Below are positions 9,542 to 17,432 of a stretch of DNA of 64,000 bases, one piece after another (the stretch's first letter is position 1; the number at the start of each line of letters is the position of its first letter). The stretch covers positions 628,501 through 692,500 of the forward strand of contig NZ_CP029353.1 of NCBI RefSeq assembly GCF_003130795.1. Reading direction: 5' to 3'. The notes under the pieces are model-generated. The model worked only from the letters and a program-made list of their open reading frames with translations, searched no databases and had not been told where the DNA came from. The DNA comes from Azospirillum thermophilum (lineage in GTDB: Bacteria; Pseudomonadota; Alphaproteobacteria; Azospirillales; Azospirillaceae). A program made the position numbers and the translations under genes.

Positions 9542-10660
9542 ATGGTTGACAGCCGAGCACTGGATCTCATCAAGCGCCTCGCCACCGACGTCGAGTTCCG
9601 CACCCAGCTCAACAGCCTGGACGCCGCGGGCAAGCAGGCTCTGCTGCAGGCCAACGGTTTCGCGGGAGTGAGCGCGGAGGATGTCCGCGCCACCGCCGCC
9701 GACGCGCTGCGCAGCCTGAGCGGCGTGAAGGGCGCCGAGCAGGGCGTGATCGCCGAGTCGATCGCCAGCGCCGCTGCCGCCAGCACCCCGGCGACCGCCC
9801 TGCCGGCCTCGGCCACCCCGGCCACGGCCAACCCCGCCGCGGCGATGCCGGCCACCGCCCTGCCGGCGTCCGCCATGCCCGCCACGGCCAACCCCGCCAC
9901 GGCGACCCCGGCGACGGCGATGCCCGCCACCGCGACCCCTGCCACCGCGATGCCCGCCGCCGCCACTCCGGCGACGGCGATGCCGGCCTCGGCCACCCCC
10001 GCCGCGGCCACTCCTGCAACGGCGATGCCGGCCAGCGCAACTCCCGCCACCGCCATGCCGGCCTCGGCGACCCCCGCGACCGCCATGCCGGCCAGCGCCA
10101 CCCCGGCGACGGCGATGCCTGCGACGGCCACTCCGGCCACGGCTACTCCGGCGACGGCCTTCCCGGCCACCGGCTTCCCGGCTGCGGCCACCCCGGCCGC
10201 TGCGACTCCGGCGACCGCGATGCCGGCCACGGCCACCCCCGCCACGGCGATGCCGGCGGCCGCGACCCCGGCGACGGCCATGCCGGCCACGGCGATGCCG
10301 GCGGCAGCGACTCCGGCGACCGCCACCCCGGCTACGGCGATGCCCGCTGCCGCCACCCCGGCCACGGCGATGCCGGCGACCGCCTTCCCGGCGGCCTCGA
10401 CTCCGGCGACGGCCACTCCGGCGACCGCCTTCCCGGCCACCGGGTTCCCGGCTGCGGCCACCCCGGCCACGGCGATGCCGGCCGCCGCCACTCCGGCAAC
10501 GGCCATGCCTGCGACGGCCATGCCTGCGACGGCGATGCCGGCTGCGGCCACCCCGGCGACGGCGATGCCCGCCACGGCGATGCCCGCCGCGGCCACGCCG
10601 GCCATCGGCACGCCGGCCGCTCCGTCGGTGGACGAGGGCGACGGGACGGAAAATGCCTGA
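9542..10660 (+). CDS. Nif11-like leader with 56 pentapeptide repeats, putative RiPP precursor
   Basis: A 372-residue protein. Residues 1-50 (ALDLIKRLATDVEFRTQLNS, then KQALLQANGFAGVSAEDVRA) match the Nif11-like leader pattern found on many RiPP precursors. Residues 51-81 are an Ala-rich linker. Residues 82-361 are 56 contiguous pentapeptides of consensus [T/M]-P-A-[T/A/S]-A. The first position is Thr in 26, Met in 21, Phe in 5, Leu in 2 and Asn in 2. An acidic tail, SVDEGDGTENA, follows. There is no Cys anywhere. The gene starts the operon and overlaps the YcaO gene by 8 bp. I infer it is the substrate of the downstream enzymes. A structural low-complexity protein is the main alternative. Confidence 0.8.
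   Translation: MVDSRALDLIKRLATDVEFRTQLNSLDAAGKQALLQANGFAGVSAEDVRATAADALRSLSGVKGAEQGVIAESIASAAAASTPATALPASATPATANPAAAMPATALPASAMPATANPATATPATAMPATATPATAMPAAATPATAMPASATPAAATPATAMPASATPATAMPASATPATAMPASATPATAMPATATPATATPATAFPATGFPAAATPAAATPATAMPATATPATAMPAAATPATAMPATAMPAAATPATATPATAMPAAATPATAMPATAFPAASTPATATPATAFPATGFPAAATPATAMPAAATPATAMPATAMPATAMPAAATPATAMPATAMPAAATPAIGTPAAPSVDEGDGTENA
9785..10624 (+). repeat. 56 x 15-bp coding tandem repeat
   Basis: 840 bp of exact 15-bp periodicity with no indel out of phase. Copies differ mainly at third positions (GCC/GCG, ACC/ACG, CCG/CCC), so the protein sequence is better conserved than the DNA. An FPATG-FPAAA pair recurs at units 26-27 and 44-45, exactly 270 bp apart, suggesting an 18-unit block duplication. 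Confidence 0.95.
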
Positions 10661-11948
10661 TCCCGGGCGGCCGGAAGCGGCTGGTTCCGTCAGCGGCGCC
10701 GGGCCGGGCATCCGGCTCGGCGATCGCGTCCACCACGCCCGCAAGCGCTTTTTCCTCGGCACCCACCGGACAGCCACTCCGGAGGAGACGCTGGAGCGCA
10801 TCCGGCCGCACCTGCTGGCCTGCGGCATCACCCGGCTGGCCGACGTCACCGGGCTGGACCGCATCGGCATCCATACGGTGCTCGGCCACCGGCCCAACAG
10901 CCCGACCCTGTCCAACAGCGCCGGGAAGGGCTTCAGCCTCGCCGCGGCCACCGTCTCGGCGGCGATGGAGGGGATCGAGCTGTTCCATGCCGAGACGGTC
11001 GGCCTGCCGCCCGTCGAATGCGCCTGGAACGACCTGCCGGCCGACGGCCACATCCCGGTGGAGCGGCTGGCCGGCACCCGCCACGGCGCCTTCCGCACCG
11101 ACCTGGCCGAGCATTGGGTGTGGGGTTGGGACCTGATCGGCGGCCGTCCGGCCGCCGCCCCCTGGACCGCGGTCGCCATGCTCGGCCCGCCGGGCGGGCG
11201 CGGCCTGCGCAACCTGTTCGCCATGGGCACCAACGGGCTGGCCAGCGGCAACCACATCCTGGAGGCGGTGGCCGCCGCGCTGTACGAGGTGATCGAGCGC
11301 GACGCCGTCGCCTGCTGGCGCTATGCCGGCAACCGCCACGGCATCCTGACGCCGCGCGTGGCGCTGGAGACGGTGGACAGCCCGGCGGTCCAGGACCTCG
11401 TCCGCCGCTTCGCCGCCGCCGGAATCGTGCCGCTGCTCTACGACGTGACGGCGGACACCGGGGTGCCGACCTACATGGCCATCGTCTACGACAAGGACTT
11501 CCGCCATGGCGGCATGTATCGCGGCTACGGCACCCATCTGGAGCCGGCGGTCGCCATGTGCCGCGCCTTGACCGAGGCGGTGCAGTCGCGGCTGGTGCTG
11601 ATCGCCGGCTCGCGCGATGACCATTTCCGCCGCGACGTGCTGCGCAACCAGGGCGCCGACACGCCGGCCCAGGTGGCGGGGCTGGAGGCGGCGCCGGCCA
11701 CCGTCCACGGCCGGGCTCACCCCGACCGCTCCACCCCCACCTTCGAAGGCGACATCGCGGTGCTGCTGGGCTGCCTGCGCCGGGTGGGGATCGAGCAGGC
11801 CATCGCCTTCGACCTGACCAAGCCGGAGATGGGGATCCCCGTCGCGCGCGTGGTGGTGCCGGGGCTGGAGGGCTACAACTTCGACTTCTACACGCCGGGC
11901 GCCCGCCCGGTGGCGTTCGCCGAGGCGTTGCGGGCGGGGGCGGCCTGA
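10653..11948 (+). CDS. YcaO-domain ATP-dependent peptide backbone-modifying enzyme
   Basis: A 431-residue YcaO protein. ATP/Mg-binding motifs are present: SAAMEGIELFHAE (about 102-114), LYEVIERDAVACW (210-222) and CRALTEAVQSR (303-313). YcaO enzymes phosphorylate a peptide amide oxygen with ATP so that a nucleophile can replace it; a side chain gives azolines, sulfide gives thioamides. The C-terminus lacks the PxPxP tail of many azoline-forming enzymes, and no E1-like or Ocin-ThiF partner is present. Next to tfuA, a thioamidating role is the most likely. Start ATG overlaps the precursor stop; the stop overlaps the TfuA start (TGATG). Confidence 0.92.
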   Translation: MPDPGRPEAAGSVSGAGPGIRLGDRVHHARKRFFLGTHRTATPEETLERIRPHLLACGITRLADVTGLDRIGIHTVLGHRPNSPTLSNSAGKGFSLAAATVSAAMEGIELFHAETVGLPPVECAWNDLPADGHIPVERLAGTRHGAFRTDLAEHWVWGWDLIGGRPAAAPWTAVAMLGPPGGRGLRNLFAMGTNGLASGNHILEAVAAALYEVIERDAVACWRYAGNRHGILTPRVALETVDSPAVQDLVRRFAAAGIVPLLYDVTADTGVPTYMAIVYDKDFRHGGMYRGYGTHLEPAVAMCRALTEAVQSRLVLIAGSRDDHFRRDVLRNQGADTPAQVAGLEAAPATVHGRAHPDRSTPTFEGDIAVLLGCLRRVGIEQAIAFDLTKPEMGIPVARVVVPGLEGYNFDFYTPGARPVAFAEALRAGAA

Positions 11949-13393
11949 TGAAGATCGTCGTCTTTCTCGGGCCGACCATGCCGGTCGAGGACGCCCGCAC
12001 CCTGCTGCCCGACGCAGTCTATCTGCCTCCGGCGGGCCAGGCCGACGTGCTCAGCGCCATGACCATCCACCGGCCGGACGTCATCGCCCTGATCGACGGG
12101 GTGTTCGGCCAGTCGCTGGCGGTCTGGCACAAGGAACTGCTCTACGCCCTGCACTGCGGCGTCGCCGTCTTCGGCAGCTCCAGCATGGGAGCGCTGCGGG
12201 CGGTGGAGTGCGCGCATTTCGGCATGGTCGGCGTCGGCACGGTGGTCGGCTGGTACCAGGACGGCACGGTCACCGGCGACGACGAGGTGGCGCTGGCCCA
12301 TGCCGGGGCGGAGGACGGCTATTTCCCGCTGTCCGAGCCGCTGGTGAACCTGCGCGCCGGCCTTGCGGCGGCGCAGGAGGCCGGCGTCATCGACGGGGCG
12401 CTGCGCGACCGGGTGGTGGATGCCGCCAAGCGGCTGTTCTTCCCCGAGCGCACCCGCGACCGCATCTGGGCCGAGGCGGGGCTGAGCGCGGAGGAGGCCG
12501 GGCGGCTCGACGCCTTCCTGGCGACCGGCGCCGTCGACGTGAAGCGGCAGGATGCCGAGGCGCTGCTGCGCCATCTCGCCGGGCTGACGCCGGACCGGCT
12601 GCCGCCGCGCGTCCCCTTCGCCTTCAACCGCTCCCACTTCTTCGACGTGCTGTACGACCGCGACCGGCGGGTGGAGAAGGGCGGCCACACCGTGCCGCTG
12701 TCGGCCATCGCCAGCCACGCCGCCCTGCACCGGACCGACTTCGCCGAGATCAACGCCGCGGCGCTGGGCCGGCTGCTGGCGGTGCAACTCGCCGACGTGG
12801 TCGGGGTGGTGGCGGACGGGCAGGCGGTGGCGGAGGAGGTCCAGCGCTTCTGCGTCCGTCATGGCCTCGCCGATCCCGCGGCGCTGGCCGGCTGGTGCCG
12901 CCGCAACGACCTGACCGACGCCGAATTCGCCGAGCTGATGCGGGAGCTCGCGACCGAGCGGGCGATGCGCCGCTGGCTGATCGACCGCCGCTTCCTCGCC
13001 CGCACCACCAGGCCGGTGCTGAACGAGCTGCGCCTGCGCGGCCTCTATGAGACGGTCGCCGCCGATGCCGCCCTGGTGGAGCGGGTGTCGGAGCTGCAGT
13101 TCGCCGACGTCGCCCAGCAGCCGACGGAAAGCCTGGACCAGCTCGTGCTCGACCATCTCGCCTCCACCGACGCGCGGATGGACAGCCATTACGAGGGCTG
13201 GTCCTATGAGGCGGGATTCAAGGACCCGCTGGACCTGCGCATCGATCTGGTGAAGGCCCGGCAGGTGCGCGGGTTCCTGGCCGACCTCGCCCGCGAGGCG
13301 GAGGAGGCCGTGCGGCAGGCGGCGTCCGGCGGGGCGGATGCGCGGACCGGTTCCGAGGCCGGGCCGGAGACAGGTAAGGAGGACGTTGCATGA
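11948..13393 (+). CDS. TfuA-like protein, YcaO partner
   Basis: A 481-residue protein. The N-terminal 125 residues carry the TfuA signature: FLGPTMPVEDARTLLP, YLPPAGQADVLSA, IALIDGVFGQSLAVWHKE, FGSSSMGALRAVEC, and DGTVTGDDEVALAHA. The remaining 350 residues are a helical extension with no domain I recognise. TfuA proteins stimulate YcaO thioamidation, and biochemical work has shown TfuA releasing sulfur from thiocarboxylated ThiS. The first gene of this kind came from trifolitoxin clusters. Overlaps both neighbours, implying co-translation with the YcaO and sulfur-carrier genes. Confidence 0.92.
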   Translation: MKIVVFLGPTMPVEDARTLLPDAVYLPPAGQADVLSAMTIHRPDVIALIDGVFGQSLAVWHKELLYALHCGVAVFGSSSMGALRAVECAHFGMVGVGTVVGWYQDGTVTGDDEVALAHAGAEDGYFPLSEPLVNLRAGLAAAQEAGVIDGALRDRVVDAAKRLFFPERTRDRIWAEAGLSAEEAGRLDAFLATGAVDVKRQDAEALLRHLAGLTPDRLPPRVPFAFNRSHFFDVLYDRDRRVEKGGHTVPLSAIASHAALHRTDFAEINAAALGRLLAVQLADVVGVVADGQAVAEEVQRFCVRHGLADPAALAGWCRRNDLTDAEFAELMRELATERAMRRWLIDRRFLARTTRPVLNELRLRGLYETVAADAALVERVSELQFADVAQQPTESLDQLVLDHLASTDARMDSHYEGWSYEAGFKDPLDLRIDLVKARQVRGFLADLAREAEEAVRQAASGGADARTGSEAGPETGKEDVA

Positions 13394-13668
13394 GCGAGGT
13401 CACCGTTCGCATCCCGACGCCGCTGCGCGGCTTCATCGGCGGGCGCGACCGCGTGACGGTCGGCGGGACCACGGTGCGCGAGGCACTGGCCGCCCTGACC
13501 GATGGGCGGGAGACGTTGCGCGACCGGCTGTTCAACGCCGACGGCGAACTGCACCGCTTCGTGAACGTCTATCTCGGGCAGGAGGACGTGCGCCGGCTGG
13601 GCGGGCTGGACGCCGCGGTGCCGGCAGGGGCGACGCTGACCGTCCTGGTCGCGCTGGCCGGTGGCTGA
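13390..13668 (+). CDS. ThiS/MoaD-like ubiquitin-fold sulfur carrier
   Basis: A 92-residue protein with the beta-grasp pattern of MoaD/ThiS: VTVRIPTPLRGFIGG, VREALAALTDGRETLRDRLF, FVNVYLGQEDVRRLGGLDA, VPAGATLTVLVALAGG. It ends exactly in Gly-Gly, the site where such carriers become thiocarboxylates. Start ATG overlaps the TfuA stop (ATGA), and it is the last gene of the operon. Its likely role is delivering sulfide to the TfuA/YcaO pair. It differs clearly from the ThiS encoded at 50.6 kb. No adenylating E1 enzyme is encoded nearby. Confidence 0.88.
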   Translation: MSEVTVRIPTPLRGFIGGRDRVTVGGTTVREALAALTDGRETLRDRLFNADGELHRFVNVYLGQEDVRRLGGLDAAVPAGATLTVLVALAGG

Positions 13669-13698: not shown

Positions 13699-14094
13699 TC
13701 AGGCGGCCTGCGAGCCGGACACGACGGTGTTCACCAGCTTCTTCAGCGCGGCGAAGTCGACCGGCTTGGTGACGAGGTCGGTGGCGCCGCCGGCCATGGC
13801 GCGGCGCTGGTTCTCGTCGTCGCCATAGGCGGTGACGATGACGACCGGGATGTTGGGCATCTCCATCCGCAGACGGCCGAGCAGCTCCAGCCCGCTCATC
13901 CCCGGCATGTTGATGTCGCTGAGGACGAGGACGGCCTCCGGCTGCAGCCCGGTATGGATGCGCTCCAGCGCCTCCTCGGCCGAACTGGCGAAGTGCAGCG
14001 CGACCTGCCCGTTGCGCAGCTCCGTGCGGAAGCGCTGACGGAACAGGTCTTCCATATCGGGTTCATCGTCTACGACCAGGATCCCGACGGTCAT
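13699..14094 (-). CDS. single-domain response regulator
   Basis: A 131-residue receiver domain with no output domain. Acidic pocket VVDDEPD, phosphoacceptor Asp60 in VLSDINMPGMSG, the T/S switch in VIVTAYGDDEN, and conserved Lys in VTKPVDF. Its ATG overlaps the TGA of the upstream histidine kinase gene (ATGA), so kinase and receiver are coupled and are probably cognate. It ends 30 bp from the convergent YcaO operon. It likely passes phosphate on or controls a protein by binding. Confidence 0.9.
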   Translation of the reverse strand: MTVGILVVDDEPDMEDLFRQRFRTELRNGQVALHFASSAEEALERIHTGLQPEAVLVLSDINMPGMSGLELLGRLRMEMPNIPVVIVTAYGDDENQRRAMAGGATDLVTKPVDFAALKKLVNTVVSGSQAA

Positions 14095-15269
14095 GGCTTG
14101 CGGCGCTCCCCTAGCGACACCGGCGGAACGACCCGTGGCAGCGTGATCGTGAACTCGGCGTATTCGTTCTCGACGCTGCTGACGTCGAATCGGCCCCTGT
14201 GTTGATGTACCACGATGTCGTAGCTGAGAGAAAGACCCAAACCGGTACCTTCACCCGTAGGTTTCGTGGTGAAGAAGGGCGTAAACAATTTATCAATCAC
14301 CGGTTTGGACATGCCGGCGCCGTTGTCGTGTACCTTGATCTGGACCTTGTCGTTACAGTCGATTGTGGTGATGGTCAGTTGCGGACGGTAGTCATTTTCA
14401 CCACCGTCCCGCTGACGCCGCCGGACCGAGTAGAAGGCGTTGGTGAACAGGTTGACCAGCACCCGCGACATGTCCTGCGGGACGAGGTCCAGCGTGCCGG
14501 CCGCCGGATCGTAATGCCGGTTGAAGGAGACGTTGAATTCGCGGTCCTGGGCGCGGGCGGCGTGATAGGCCAGCGCCAGGCTCTCCTCGATCAGGACGTT
14601 CAGCTCGGTGTTGCGCCATTCGCCGCTGCCGCCGCGGGAATGGGCCAGCATGCTCTTCACGATGCCGTCGGCCCGCCGGCCATGCTCGGCGATCTTGCGC
14701 AGGTTGCTGTGCAGGCTGCCCACCAGCTCGTCGAAATCGGCCTTCTGGTCGGGATCGAGCTGGGCGGACAGCGGGCTGATCAGCGCGCACAGCTCGTCCA
14801 GCAGCTCGCCCGACAGCTCGGCGAAGTTGTTGACGAAGTTCAGCGGGTTCTTCAGCTCGTGCGCGATGCCGGCGGTGAGCTGGCCGAGCGAGGCCATCTT
14901 CTCCTGCACGACGAGCTGCTGCTGCGCCTCGCGCAGCTCGCGGGCGGCGGCCTCGGCCCGCTCCTTGGCCTGGCGGAGCTCGTCCTCGATGCGGATGCGG
15001 TCGGTGATGTCGAGGTGGGTGACGACGAAGCCGCCGTCGGCGCGCGGCGCGGTGCGGATGTCGATCACCCGGCCGTTCGGAACGCGCCGCTCGGCGTTGA
15101 TGACCCCGCGCACCTCGAACCGCTTCATCAGCATGGCGATGGTGGCGTCGGGGTCGACGTCGCCGAAGTCGCCGCGCTCGTAGTTGTAGCGCAGCATGAC
15201 GTCCATCGGCGTGCCCGGCGGGAACAGGCCGGGGGGATAGTCGAACAGCCGCAGGAACTCGCTGTTCAT
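14091..15269 (-). CDS. histidine kinase, C-terminal part (frameshifted gene)
   Basis: A 392-residue frame. It starts in the middle of a PAS domain ([20 protein letters not shown]), followed by a second half-PAS ending in HLDITDR, a coiled coil, the H-box [15 protein letters not shown] (His137), and a HATPase domain with [18 protein letters not shown] and [15 protein letters not shown]. It has no membrane segment. The first PAS half is encoded by the preceding frame (15266-15790); one missing base near 15268 separates them. The ATG here overlaps that stop (ATGA), so reinitiation could still produce this part. It may be a real mutation or a sequencing error. Confidence 0.8.
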
Positions 15270-15790
15270 CCCTCCATGCACAGGTCGCCGGCCAGCATCA
15301 GCACGCCGTTCGGCATGGCGTCGATGGCCGCCTGCAGCAGCTGCCACTGTTCCGGCATCTCGGTGAAGCCGGCCGGCGGGCGAACCCGGGCCAGCATCTC
15401 CAGCACGGCGGGCTCGCCACCCCAGTCGATCGGCTCCAGCAGCTGGTCGAACCATTGCACCGACCGGTCGGCGCGCCGCCGCTTGGTCCGGCGCAGGTCG
15501 CTGCGGGTGACGCCGGCCAGACACTCGGCATAGGCGCTGCGCTCGGCCACCAGCGCGTCTTCCGGAACGAGGTCGAGCACGCTCGGCAGCACCAGCACGT
15601 CGTCCGGCGCCTGGTAGCCCAGCAGCCGGGCCAGCCCCTCGTTGCAATGAACGATGTGGTCGCCGCGGTGGATGATCAGGCCGGGCAGGTCGGCCAGCAC
15701 CTTGTCGCGGTAGCGGCGGGCGCTGGCGATGGTGCTTTCCACAGAGTCCGGGGCGCCGCCGGCGGTGACCGTCTCCATCTCGTCTTCCAT
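15266..15790 (-). CDS. histidine kinase, N-terminal PAS part (frameshifted gene)
   Basis: A 174-residue frame starting [12 protein letters not shown], 19 bp after the upstream kinase stop. Residues 25-140 form a PAS domain ([31 protein letters not shown]). It then enters a second PAS domain of the PAS_7 type ([20 protein letters not shown]) but stops after CMEG. The missing half of that PAS is in the overlapping next frame. Adding one base at about 15268 would join the two into one kinase of about 567 residues. Earlier in-frame ATG codons overlap the upstream gene and were not used. Confidence 0.75.
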
Positions 15791-15809
15791 CGCGCAGGAA
15801 TCCTGTCGA

Positions 15810-17432
15810 TCAAGGCGCGTCCAGCGGCAGCCGGAGCAGCAGGGTGGTGCCCTTGCCCGGCTCGCTTTCCGCATGGATTTCCCCGCTCAGCCTGCCGGTG
15901 ACGAGGTTGAAGGTGGCATAGAGCCCCAACCCCATGCTGCCCGACCCGCGGCGGGTGGTGGTGAAGGGTTCGAACAGGCGCGGCAGGATCTCCGCCGGGA
16001 TGCCGCGGCCGTTGTCGCAGACCCGCAGTTCCACCCGGTCGTCCGGCAGCGGCCGGGCCGACACCAGCACCCTGCCGCCCTGGCCGGGGGCGAAGGCGTG
16101 GTGGAAGGCGTTGTTCAGCAGGTTGATCAGGACCTCGGTCAGGGCGCCGGGATAGCTGTCGAGGATCAGCCCCTCGGCGCAGTCCAGCACCAGCTCGTGC
16201 CCGGCGGCGACCGGCTGCACCCGCACGGCCAGCACGATGTCCTGCAGATACTCCCTGAGGTCGAAGCGGCTGCGCGGGGTGGAGCTCTGCCCCTCCGTCA
16301 CCAGCTTCAGGCTCTGGATCAGGGCGGCGGCCCGCTCGATGCTGGTGACCAGCAGGGAGGAGACCTCCTGCGCCGTCCCGATATAGTCCTGGAAGTCGCT
16401 CTTGCGCAGCTGCCCGTCCTGGAAGCTGCCGACGACCCGTTCCGACGCGGTGGACAGGTGGGTGGCGGCGGTCAGGGCGATGCCCACGGGCGTGTTGATC
16501 TCGTGCGCCACGGCGGCGATGAGCTGGCCGATGACCGCCATCTTCTCCGCCCGCACCAGATCGGACTGCATGCGCTCCAGGTCGGCGAGCGCCTGTTCGG
16601 CGGCCTCCTTGGCGCGGCGCAGCGCCTCCGCCTGGACCTTGCGCTCGGTGATGTCGTAGAGCCAGACGATGGTCGCCGTCCGTCCCTCGTACACCGTCTG
16701 GTCGAAGGACAGGATGGTCCAGATCGTGCTGCCGTCGGCATGGACGAAGGTGAACTCCTCGTCCCGCACGGTCAGCCCGGCGCGCAGCCGGTCGAGCAGC
16801 CGGTCGCCGTCCTCGGCGCACTGGTGCAGGGCGGCGGTGCCGCGCCGCTGCAGCTCCGCCGTCGTCAGGCCCAGCAGGTCGGCGCAGCGCTGGTTGCAAT
16901 AGAGGATCTCGCCGTCCGGCGCGGCGATGGTGACGCCGACCGGGCTGGCGTCCAGCATGCGGCGCAGCCGGGCGGCCTGGGCGCGCGACGCCGCCTCCGC
17001 CGTGCGCGTCTCCTCCAGCGCCTCGCGCAGCCGGCGCTCGGCGGCGCAGACCGACAGCGTCTTGCGGATGGTCGCTTCCAGGTCGGCGAAGTCGATCGGC
17101 TTGGTGATGAAGTCGAAGGCGCCGCGGTTCATCGCCGCGCGCACGTTGCCGAGGTCGCCGTAGGCCGACACCATCACGGCGCGGACATCGGCATTCACCT
17201 TGGGCAGATGGTCGAGGAGCGTCAGCCCGTCCATGCCGGGCATGTTGATGTCGCTCAGCACCATGTCGATATCGGGGTTGGAGCGCAGGGTCGCCAGCGC
17301 CTCCTCCCCGTCATGGGCGAACAGGAATTCCAGCTCTCCGTTGCGGACGGCCCGGCGAAAGCGCTGGGTGATCAGCACTTCGACGTCGCGCTCGTCGTCA
17401 ACAACCAGGATACGTCCCATCCGCTCTTCCAA
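15810..17432 (-). CDS. hybrid sensor kinase (REC-PAS-HisKA-HATPase)
   Basis: A 540-residue soluble kinase. An N-terminal receiver (Asp61 in MVLSDINMPGMDG; Lys in ITKPIDF) is followed by a coiled coil and a PAS domain (about 155-265, LDASPVGVTIAAPDGEILYCN). Next come a HisKA H-box with His310 (AAVAHEINTPVG) and a HATPase domain (INLLNNAFHHAF, VCDNGRGIPAEIL, GSMGLGLYATFN). It lies upstream of the split kinase and the single receiver on one strand, a three-gene phosphorelay candidate. A MGRILVV start 12 bases downstream is equally possible. The signal is unknown. Confidence 0.9.
   Translation of the reverse strand: MEERMGRILVVDDERDVEVLITQRFRRAVRNGELEFLFAHDGEEALATLRSNPDIDMVLSDINMPGMDGLTLLDHLPKVNADVRAVMVSAYGDLGNVRAAMNRGAFDFITKPIDFADLEATIRKTLSVCAAERRLREALEETRTAEAASRAQAARLRRMLDASPVGVTIAAPDGEILYCNQRCADLLGLTTAELQRRGTAALHQCAEDGDRLLDRLRAGLTVRDEEFTFVHADGSTIWTILSFDQTVYEGRTATIVWLYDITERKVQAEALRRAKEAAEQALADLERMQSDLVRAEKMAVIGQLIAAVAHEINTPVGIALTAATHLSTASERVVGSFQDGQLRKSDFQDYIGTAQEVSSLLVTSIERAAALIQSLKLVTEGQSSTPRSRFDLREYLQDIVLAVRVQPVAAGHELVLDCAEGLILDSYPGALTEVLINLLNNAFHHAFAPGQGGRVLVSARPLPDDRVELRVCDNGRGIPAEILPRLFEPFTTTRRGSGSMGLGLYATFNLVTGRLSGEIHAESEPGKGTTLLLRLPLDAP

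What the first reader, a model, noticed from the sequence alone, without database searches (positions are those of the whole stretch)
9542..13668. Four-gene YcaO-TfuA-ThiS operon with a pentapeptide-repeat precursor: a likely new thioamidated RiPP class
Seen: four genes joined by 8-, 1- and 4-bp overlaps encode a Nif11-like leader with 56 X-P-A-x-A repeats, a YcaO, a TfuA, and a ThiS/MoaD-like protein ending in Gly-Gly. Known: YcaO-TfuA pairs install backbone thioamides, and TfuA can take sulfur from thiocarboxylated ThiS. Inference: the operon contains substrate, enzyme, activator and sulfur carrier, and might thioamidate a long, Cys-free repetitive core of about 280 residues. Repeated cores are known in some thioamide RiPPs, but I know of none this long with an alternating Thr/Met-Pro-Ala pattern. 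No protease or exporter is adjacent, so the product could stay as a polymer.
Basis: partly seen in the sequence, partly recalled or inferred. Interest (0 to 1): 0.95.

Follow-up and report, generated by a model that had tools for sequence, protein, structure and literature searches.

The report
Repeat-protein operon predicted to receive sulfur
A group of soil bacteria carries a small operon that appears to swap oxygen for sulfur in the backbone of a long, highly repetitive protein whose leader is conserved but whose repeat is rewritten almost completely between species, which points to a fast-diversifying family of sulfur-modified peptides.

Summary
Four overlapping genes encode a 372-aa precursor (Nif11-like leader, 56 x-P-A units), a YcaO, a TfuA and a ThiS-like carrier ending in Gly-Gly. 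Relatives with the same leader are Azospirillum. Of 37 genus genomes searched for both parts, close YcaO and leader occur in the same 19 and in none of the other 18. Leaders are 54-70% identical to the window's, but cores are replaced by other repeats (best lags 9 to 44 residues) that stay rich in small residues and nearly uncharged. Seventeen of 18 relatives' loci add a rhodanese-ThiF gene that could charge ThiS with sulfur; the window lacks it. The operon and adjacent kinase form an island of raised divergence. I conclude: a thioamidated-RiPP-type system with long multi-copy cores. Thioamide chemistry is inferred, not shown; polymer versus cut peptides is undecided. Thiovarsolins (repeat cores) and Nif11-TfuA clusters are published precedents, so this is a new variant, not a new class. 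A second leader type with repeat cores lies next to YcaO-TfuA elsewhere in the class.

The parts
9542..10660 (+). Precursor P1: Nif11-like leader (about residues 1-78) + about 282-aa core of 56 x-P-A units + short acidic tail
   Evidence: ORF; leader alignment with 30 invariant columns in 13 genomes; Nif11/NHLP models commonest hits in the family; repeat and codon statistics
9542..9775 (+). Leader segment ending in the conserved ESIAxAA block; predicted helical
   Evidence: model of 89 residues, five helices, mean pLDDT 69.5, low after residue 60
9776..10621 (+). Repetitive core (T/M/F/L/N)-P-A-(T/A/S)-A
10653..11948 (+). YcaO, best NCBIfam match the McrA-glycine thioamidation YcaO (below its cut-off)
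   Evidence: PF02624 E 5.9e-73; TIGR03266 E 4.5e-63, 213.5 of 365 bits; PDB MJ1094 6pe3 E 4.1e-29
11948..13393 (+). TfuA: N-terminal TfuA part (residues 3-209) + about 270-aa conserved C-terminal extension of unknown fold
   Evidence: PF07812; NF033432 E 4.5e-59, 199.4 of 235.2 bits; PDB 6xp8 E 2.1e-35 over 3-209; extension matched by 28 proteins at E <= 0.001 among 7996 scored candidates
13390..13668 (+). ThiS/CysO-like sulfur carrier ending in Gly-Gly
   Evidence: PF02597; PDB 4n6e_B E 1.1e-16 and 3dwg_C E 4.6e-16
13699..14094 (-). Single-domain response regulator, convergent with the operon; conserved neighbour
   Evidence: PF00072; match in 17 of 18 relatives' loci, not in L032
14091..15874 (-). 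PAS histidine kinase linked to the operon across the genus; in the window its N-terminal PAS part (ORF 15266-15874) and its kinase part (ORF 14091-15647) lie in different frames, i.e. a frameshift in this assembly

Best explanation
It is a thioamidated-RiPP-type operon. The Nif11-like leader of a long precursor recruits the YcaO-TfuA pair. ThiS, thiocarboxylated on its C-terminal glycine (by the rhodanese-ThiF enzyme next door in most relatives, presumably by a housekeeping MoeB here), delivers sulfide through TfuA, and YcaO uses ATP to exchange O for S at backbone amides that recur once or more per repeat. The array is then most likely cut by general proteases into many copies of a short thioamidated peptide, as for thiovarsolin. 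Species-to-species replacement of the repeat, and divergence of the operon with its neighbouring kinase, suggest a role in signalling or competition. Shown by sequence: gene content, order, linkage, leader conservation, core replacement, coding constraint. Inferred: sulfur chemistry, sites, cleavage, biological role.
For: Domain content. YcaO and TfuA match the McrA thioamidation models and solved MJ1094/TfuA sequences best. ThiS ends in GG and matches CysO-type carriers; rhodanese-ThiF follows ThiS in 17 of 18 relatives' loci. Leader and YcaO occur in the same 19 of 37 genus genomes. Leader conserved while cores are different repeats, 71-91% A/G/S/T/P with 0-4 charged residues in 12 cores measured. 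Enzyme clades largely follow core type. The A. soli core has a 55-residue stretch without Ser/Thr/Cys, which azoline chemistry could not modify. A repetitive ORF directly upstream of YcaO recurs in 4 of 52 other YcaO-TfuA loci (two of the four were fetched because they are relatives of the first; 2 of 50 without them), against 0 repetitive among 1643 ORFs more than 4.5 kb away in the same loci. Precedents: thiovarsolin repeat precursor (PMC6511847, passages); ThiS-type carrier plus TfuA hydrolase as sulfide supply (PMC13063428, passages).
Against: No mass data. No shared sequence motif across cores marks a modification site. No GG cleavage motif, protease or exporter found beside it. The window lacks the rhodanese-ThiF and the second precursor. 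Presence in the genus needs only two changes on a GlyS tree of 31 of the 45 genus genomes, so co-occurrence is mostly one linkage inherited together, not many independent events. Core type does not follow the enzyme tree perfectly: x-P-A-x-A occurs both in the window, whose enzymes pair with those of A. soli (IFAGQPA core), and in G026/G034 elsewhere in the tree. The excess of third-position differences between repeats is strong in the window but nearly absent in G003 (28/25/31) and weak in A. soli (135/130/171). The second precursor is not repetitive in G010 and only irregularly so in G003. 48 of the 52 other YcaO-TfuA loci have no repetitive ORF directly upstream. A protein search with the leader found nothing at E <= 0.001.
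Confidence: 0.72

Rival explanations
1. The modified protein is not cut: it stays as a thioamidated polymer (structural, protective or metal-binding), with repeats serving as material rather than as peptide copies.
For: No protease or exporter among the window neighbours scanned; cores are long (83-417 aa over 12 measured), nearly uncharged and low-complexity; best repeat lags range from 9 to 44 residues, with a 5-residue unit in the window, odd for one conserved processing step.
Against: The thiovarsolin cluster also lacks a specific protease (PMC6511847, passages). A polymer gives no clear reason for replacing the repeat between close species. The A. soli and 44-mer cores share no residue pattern with x-P-A-x-A that would give one material property.
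Confidence: 0.25
2. YcaO makes azolines or azoles at Ser/Thr in the repeats instead of thioamides.
For: Most cores contain Ser/Thr (9-32% S/T/C over 12 cores); the YcaO also matches the SagD-type cyclodehydratase model, below its cut-off.
Against: TfuA and ThiS have no known role in azoline formation (recalled); no E1-like/Ocin-ThiF partner among the window neighbours scanned; the YcaO alignment ends without a PxPxP-like tail (motif recalled); the A. soli core has a 55-residue run with no Ser/Thr/Cys.
Confidence: 0.07
3. YcaO-TfuA-ThiS modifies some conserved cellular protein, as for McrA or ribosomal uL16, and the repeat gene beside it is unrelated.
For: The enzymes are well conserved (mean column identity 79%), resembling protein-modifying YcaOs; YcaO-TfuA in archaea act on McrA (PMC5589413, search listing).
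Against: In 37 genomes the leader is found only with this YcaO; precursor and YcaO overlap by 8 bases in the window and in A. soli; enzyme clades largely follow core type; 14 of 24 leader-bearing genomes have a second gene of the same leader family.
Confidence: 0.06
4. The repeat ORF is a compositional artefact of a GC-rich genome, with the true gene on the other strand or none.
For: A 371-aa antisense ORF exists over the same stretch; high GC makes long spurious ORFs common; codon-position evidence is weak in two of 12 arrays.
Against: Leader conserved in 13 genomes; in the window third codon positions differ more than four times as often as first or second positions between repeats in the sense frame; a conserved downstream operon is read in the same direction.
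Confidence: 0.01

Closest known systems
Thiovarsolin (var) clusters, Streptomyces varsoviensis (PMC6511847, passages)
   Same: YcaO-TfuA pair; leader followed by repeats that each hold a core; no specific protease in the cluster
   Different: Actinobacterial; APR/GPR core and extra tailoring genes; the window has a Nif11-like leader, 56 units, an in-operon ThiS, and no further tailoring gene found beside it
Nif11-like precursors in TfuA clusters (PMC8120280, section 12: Desulforegula, Anabaena, Rhizobium, Simkania, Ruegeria)
   Same: Nif11-type leader beside TfuA; a MoeB gene is listed in the legend of the figure that includes one
   Different: Those have a GG cleavage motif and were found with RiPPER at standard settings (default length limit 120 aa); here no GG motif is conserved, complete precursors are 174-505 aa and tandem-repetitive, and Azospirillum is not named in the main text
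McrA-glycine thioamidation YcaO-TfuA of methanogens
   Same: Best NCBIfam matches for both enzymes
   Different: Substrate is an enzyme subunit, not a leader-core precursor; the matched solved TfuA is 217 aa, here 481 aa; scores lie below the equivalog cut-offs
CysO-MoeZ sulfur delivery in secondary metabolism (Amycolatopsis; recalled, with PDB 4n6e_B as the sequence match)
   Same: Small GG-ended carrier with a rhodanese-ThiF activator as a sulfur source
   Different: There it supplies a thiosugar (recalled); here it is inferred to feed YcaO through TfuA; the activator is missing from the window
Prochlorosins and other Nif11-leader lanthipeptides (recalled)
   Same: Conserved Nif11-type leader with hypervariable cores
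   Different: Many small precursors with single cores and a lanthionine synthetase; here one or two precursors, mostly long and repetitive, and a YcaO

Membership tests
Thioamidated RiPPs (YcaO-TfuA) | Adjacent YcaO and TfuA genes | tested here: met
   also in 18 of 18 relatives' loci
Thioamidated RiPPs (YcaO-TfuA) | Linked precursor with a conserved leader and a variable core | tested here: met
Thioamidated RiPPs (YcaO-TfuA) | Backbone thioamide in the product | not testable with these tools
   needs mass spectrometry or NMR
Thioamidated RiPPs (YcaO-TfuA) | Sulfur supply by a thiocarboxylated carrier | tested here: inconclusive
   GG-ended ThiS in the operon; activator in 17 of 18 relatives' loci but not in the window; the reaction was not tested
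Nif11/NHLP leader peptides | Match to Nif11 or leader_Nif11 above the curated cut-off | tested here: not met
   Window 12.6 of 23.8 bits (Pfam) and 16.1 of 32.3 bits (NCBIfam); these models are the commonest matches in the family, but bit scores of other members were not shown. Filed as Nif11-like only
Nif11/NHLP leader peptides | GG-type cleavage site | tested here: not met
   None conserved in A1 or A6; the boundary block of P1 is ESIAxAA
Thiovarsolin family | Repeat core with APR motif | tested here: not met
   No APR in the window core nor in the 7 other cores tested
Azoline RiPPs (LAPs, cyanobactins) | E1-like/Ocin-ThiF partner with an RRE | tested here: not met
   None among the window neighbours scanned; the ThiF of relatives is a rhodanese-ThiF protein
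McrA thioamidation enzymes | Score above the equivalog cut-off | tested here: not met
   TIGR03266 213.5 of 365; NF033432 199.4 of 235.2

The most novel reading that the evidence does not exclude
The operon is a diversifying 'password' locus. Multi-copy thioamidated peptides, whose repeat is rewritten between species and which move by exchange of operon alleles, are read by the adjacent PAS kinase and response regulator, which diverge with the operon. That would be a Gram-negative, thioamide-based analogue of Gram-positive pheromone-receptor polymorphism. Long repeat-core precursors may be a recurrent strategy of alphaproteobacterial YcaO-TfuA systems, reached with at least two different leader types.
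Probability: 0.15. Interest if true: 0.92.

Novelty: new variant of a known kind. Interest (0 to 1): 0.75.

Why it matters
If right, one small operon could put tens of thioamides on a single ribosomal chain (thiostreptamide S4 has four), with its own sulfur carrier. The leader stays and the core is rewritten, so the enzymes must accept very different repeats; that makes them attractive for installing thioamides in designed polymers and lets one ask what YcaO-TfuA really recognise. Complete precursors of 174-505 aa exceed the 120-aa default of RiPPER, so such families can be missed by standard mining. The divergence island shared with a kinase makes a role in signalling or competition among Azospirillum directly testable.

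Tried and rejected
Leader search of the protein database found 2081 word-sharing candidates but none at E <= 0.001, although the same leaders are plain in genomes; I draw no conclusion from it. Alignment A2 is void: loci of '-' matches are not reoriented and several rows were on the wrong strand; replaced by A3. I thought the TfuA C-terminal extension might be a SurA-like peptide-binding domain; Pfam and PDB gave nothing usable and the AlphaFold model is poor (pLDDT 57.6), so no fold search was run on either model. A Cys- or Met-based metal-binding core was dropped as a general reading: Cys occurs in 2 of 12 cores measured, and 8 of 12 have four or fewer Met. Counting co-occurrence as many independent events was rejected after the GlyS tree (31 of 45 genus genomes, 14 left out). 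Exchange of the operon between G003 and G010 is suggested by identities, but the GlyS test does not reject the pair as a clade (p 0.094); for G000 and G001 it does (p 0.0055). Sigma-70 and terminator scans and Rfam gave nothing of use. A full-length precursor alignment (A8) was made and not used.
Full report
OBSERVATION. The four genes are present as described: 9542-10660, 10653-11948, 11948-13393 and 13390-13668 on the + strand with overlaps of 8, 1 and 4 bases. Pfam gives YcaO, TfuA and ThiS; NCBIfam puts YcaO and TfuA closest to the McrA-glycine thioamidation pair, below the equivalog cut-offs. Closest solved sequences are MJ1094 for YcaO (E 4.1e-29), a 217-aa TfuA for residues 3-209 of TfuA (E 2.1e-35) and CysO/ThiS-type carriers for the 92-aa protein. 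The precursor holds 56 x-P-A units, 51 of them exactly x-P-A-x-A; by my cut the core is 282 aa, 89% A/G/S/T/P, with no charge and no Cys. Between repeats at the best lag, codon positions 1/2/3 differ 35/32/152 times, so the protein, not the DNA, is what is conserved. Across 12 arrays this excess varies: it is weak in A. soli (135/130/171) and nearly absent in G003 (28/25/31).

HOST AND DISTRIBUTION. A leader profile (A1, 13 rows) scanned against genome contigs returned 13 loci, all Azospirillum. Among 37 genus genomes searched for both parts (the window's own included), close YcaO orthologues (68-77% identity, window aside) and leaders occur in the same 19, and in none of the other 18. Over 100 genomes the leader is in 24, all among the 45 of the genus; 0 of 15 from other genera of the family and 0 of 40 from other families of the class. 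Five of the 24 were not searched for YcaO. In 13 of the 19 the leader gene is directly upstream of YcaO (window plus 12). In five the contig ends 414-714 bases upstream of the YcaO match, and the leader lies at another contig's end. In the sixth (G006) leader and YcaO lie about 0.93 Mb apart in one scaffold, but each half of the array runs into unread bases, so I take this for a scaffolding artefact. Four drafts stop inside the array (L076, L079, L083, L085).

CORE REPLACEMENT. Leaders share 30 invariant columns and 54-70% identity to the window, but the cores are different repeats: x-P-A-(T/A/S)-A (window, A. doebereinerae, A. agricola); IFAGQPAAG (A. soli); a 25-mer rich in SAVAAPASAF (several strains); AGFAAAGAPSPAASAAGT-type 18/29-mers (A. 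oryzae) and related AGMAGHAAAGAPAPAF (A. lipoferum Sp59b, G015); a 44-mer (G003, G010); AIWSGAPAAASPAAG (G029; only the 3' end seen); GTIAAGQIAG (A. cavernae, where the frame breaks). Over 12 cores measured A/G/S/T/P is 71-91% and charged residues number 0-4. The A. soli core has a 55-residue run with no Ser, Thr or Cys, which argues against azolines as the general product.

LEADER TYPE. Alone, the window leader matches Nif11 weakly (E 0.18 Pfam; 0.0099 NCBIfam; both below cut-off). Over 19 leaders of both precursor types the commonest matches are Nif11 (14 of 19, best E 1.1e-4), leader_Nif11 (17 of 19, best 1.8e-4) and NHLP-related RiPP peptide (19 of 19, best 0.0042). An AlphaFold model is helical with moderate confidence (pLDDT 69.5). 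No GG site is conserved; the P1 leader ends in ESIAxAA.

EXTRA PARTS IN RELATIVES. A 385-aa rhodanese-ThiF protein follows ThiS on the same strand in 17 of 18 relatives' loci (16 by ORF call, L048 by tblastn; domains of two members). A. soli and the window lack it; the window genome has a separate MoeB-like gene with 52% identity over the ThiF part. This completes a plausible sulfur relay. A second gene of the same leader family is matched in 14 of 24 leader-bearing genomes, not in the window's; in 13 it is on the same contig within about 2 kb of the first, in G061 on another contig. I read nine of them: seven have clear repeats (e.g. SASAIETADGRALAP, FSAPAMASAG, AFGQPASSA), G003 is only irregularly repetitive and G010 is a short protein without repeats; one search shows two more with repeats (L076, L079).

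EVOLUTION. On a GlyS tree of 31 genus genomes (14 of 45 left out) the operon needs two changes, so presence is mainly clade-wise: a clade of 11 bearers, G000 as its sister (100/98), and A. soli (G001) with the non-bearers (89/67). The YcaO+TfuA tree joins G000 and G001 with 100/100 support, while GlyS rejects them as a pair (p 0.0055): transfer is likely. The operon lies on the same fetched stretch as glyQ-glyS in 11 relatives; in the window genome and A. soli glyS is far away. Between G010 and G014 GlyS and GlyQ are 98% identical, but leader 68%, YcaO 75%, TfuA 76%, ThiS 82%, rhodanese-ThiF 85%, regulator 83%, kinase 72%, then the next two kinases 88% and 83%; GlyS does not formally reject G003+G010 as a clade (p 0.094). 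Enzyme clades largely follow core type, except that x-P-A-x-A appears in two places. The kinase is found at E <= 1e-100 in exactly the 15 operon-bearing of 28 genus genomes tested (confounded with clade); between G010 and G014, and between G013 and G014, its N-terminal third diverges most. In the window the kinase is split between two frames; 17 of 17 relatives read have both halves in one frame.

WIDER CONTEXT. The TfuA C-terminal extension (residues 215-460) has 28 homologues at E <= 0.001 among the 7996 candidates scored; 23 are 62-92% identical, six are named Azospirillum, and one at 42% is labelled Longimicrobiaceae. Of 52 other YcaO-TfuA loci (12 of the genus's second YcaO type, 40 elsewhere in the phylum) four have a repetitive ORF directly upstream of YcaO: L143, L170 and L171 (AGRYYVTPG-type) and L195 (DDSQRHAANFIGTTP). 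L170 and L171 were fetched as relatives of L143, so 2 of 50 is the fairer count; of 1643 ORFs more than 4.5 kb away in the same loci none is repetitive by the same score. By eye these four share a different leader, RxPDGxLYxV-like, again with replaced cores. Three more loci (L139, L145, L172) have longer proteins with C-terminal repeats 1.3-1.9 kb downstream of the TfuA match.

LITERATURE. Thiovarsolins: repeat precursor, thioamide between Pro and Arg, no specific protease (PMC6511847, passages). Nif11-like precursors in TfuA clusters of five genera, with a GG motif (PMC8120280, passages and section 12). ThiS-type carrier plus TfuA hydrolase as sulfide supply (PMC13063428, passages). Thioamidation as the proposed first step in thiostreptamide S4 by YcaO- and TfuA-like proteins (PMC8153245, passages). 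Searches for YcaO+Azospirillum (4 papers, listing only), Azospirillum+thioamitide (2, listing only), TfuA+repeat+precursor+Alphaproteobacteria (1, listing only), thioamid+tandem repeat+RiPP+YcaO (0) and repetitive+core peptide+thioamide+leader peptide (3 listed, two of them the papers above) showed no report of this family; the library holds open-licence papers only and supplementary files were not seen. RiPPER's 120-aa default would tend to pass over these precursors.

CONCLUSION. A real, conserved, leader-core operon with a sulfur-transfer set and long, rewritten repeat cores. Thioamidation is the best inference (about 0.72); whether the array is cut or kept is open. It is a new variant of a known kind.

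Noticed in passing
window 14091-15874 (-): The PAS histidine kinase is split between two frames near 15266 in the window, while 17 of 17 relatives read have both halves in one frame; either a pseudogene or an assembly error. The genome's second YcaO (G000:C1:624648-625807) also falls in two frames, which favours sequencing errors.
   Followed up: partly
L143 11303-12340; L170 4445-4945; L171 4997-5413; L195 8931-9356: A different leader type (RxPDGxLYxV-like, by eye) with tandem-repeat cores directly upstream of YcaO-TfuA in other genomes of the class.
   Followed up: partly
L139 12380-12982; L145 11692-12594; L172 5107-5640: Longer proteins with C-terminal repeats (DLVGRS, RAVMAS, VSGAR) 1.3-1.9 kb downstream of the TfuA match; L139 and L172 look alike by eye; Pfam finds only a sub-threshold pentapeptide-repeat match in L172.
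   Followed up: partly
window 12587-13390 (TfuA residues 214-481): Conserved C-terminal extension of TfuA without a usable Pfam or PDB match; a candidate precursor-binding domain.
   Followed up: partly
L077 10001-11305 (A. cavernae): The precursor repeat changes frame within the array, giving an Arg-rich tail; sequencing error or decay. Its second precursor has intact AFGQPASSA repeats resembling the A. soli core.
   Followed up: partly
L032 4002-5138 (-) (A. doebereinerae): An MFS transporter (PF07690 E 9e-14) follows the rhodanese-ThiF gene here, where other relatives have the response regulator and kinase.
   Followed up: partly
A6 leaders: Eight of 19 leaders also weakly match the IniB N-terminal model (best E 0.0015), a mycobacterial protein that, as I recall, has a Gly/Ala-rich repetitive tail.
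   Followed up: no
L049-L060: All 37 genus genomes have a second YcaO type, about 39-45% identical to the window's, beside a TfuA gene in the 12 loci fetched; none of those 12 has a repetitive ORF directly upstream.
   Followed up: partly
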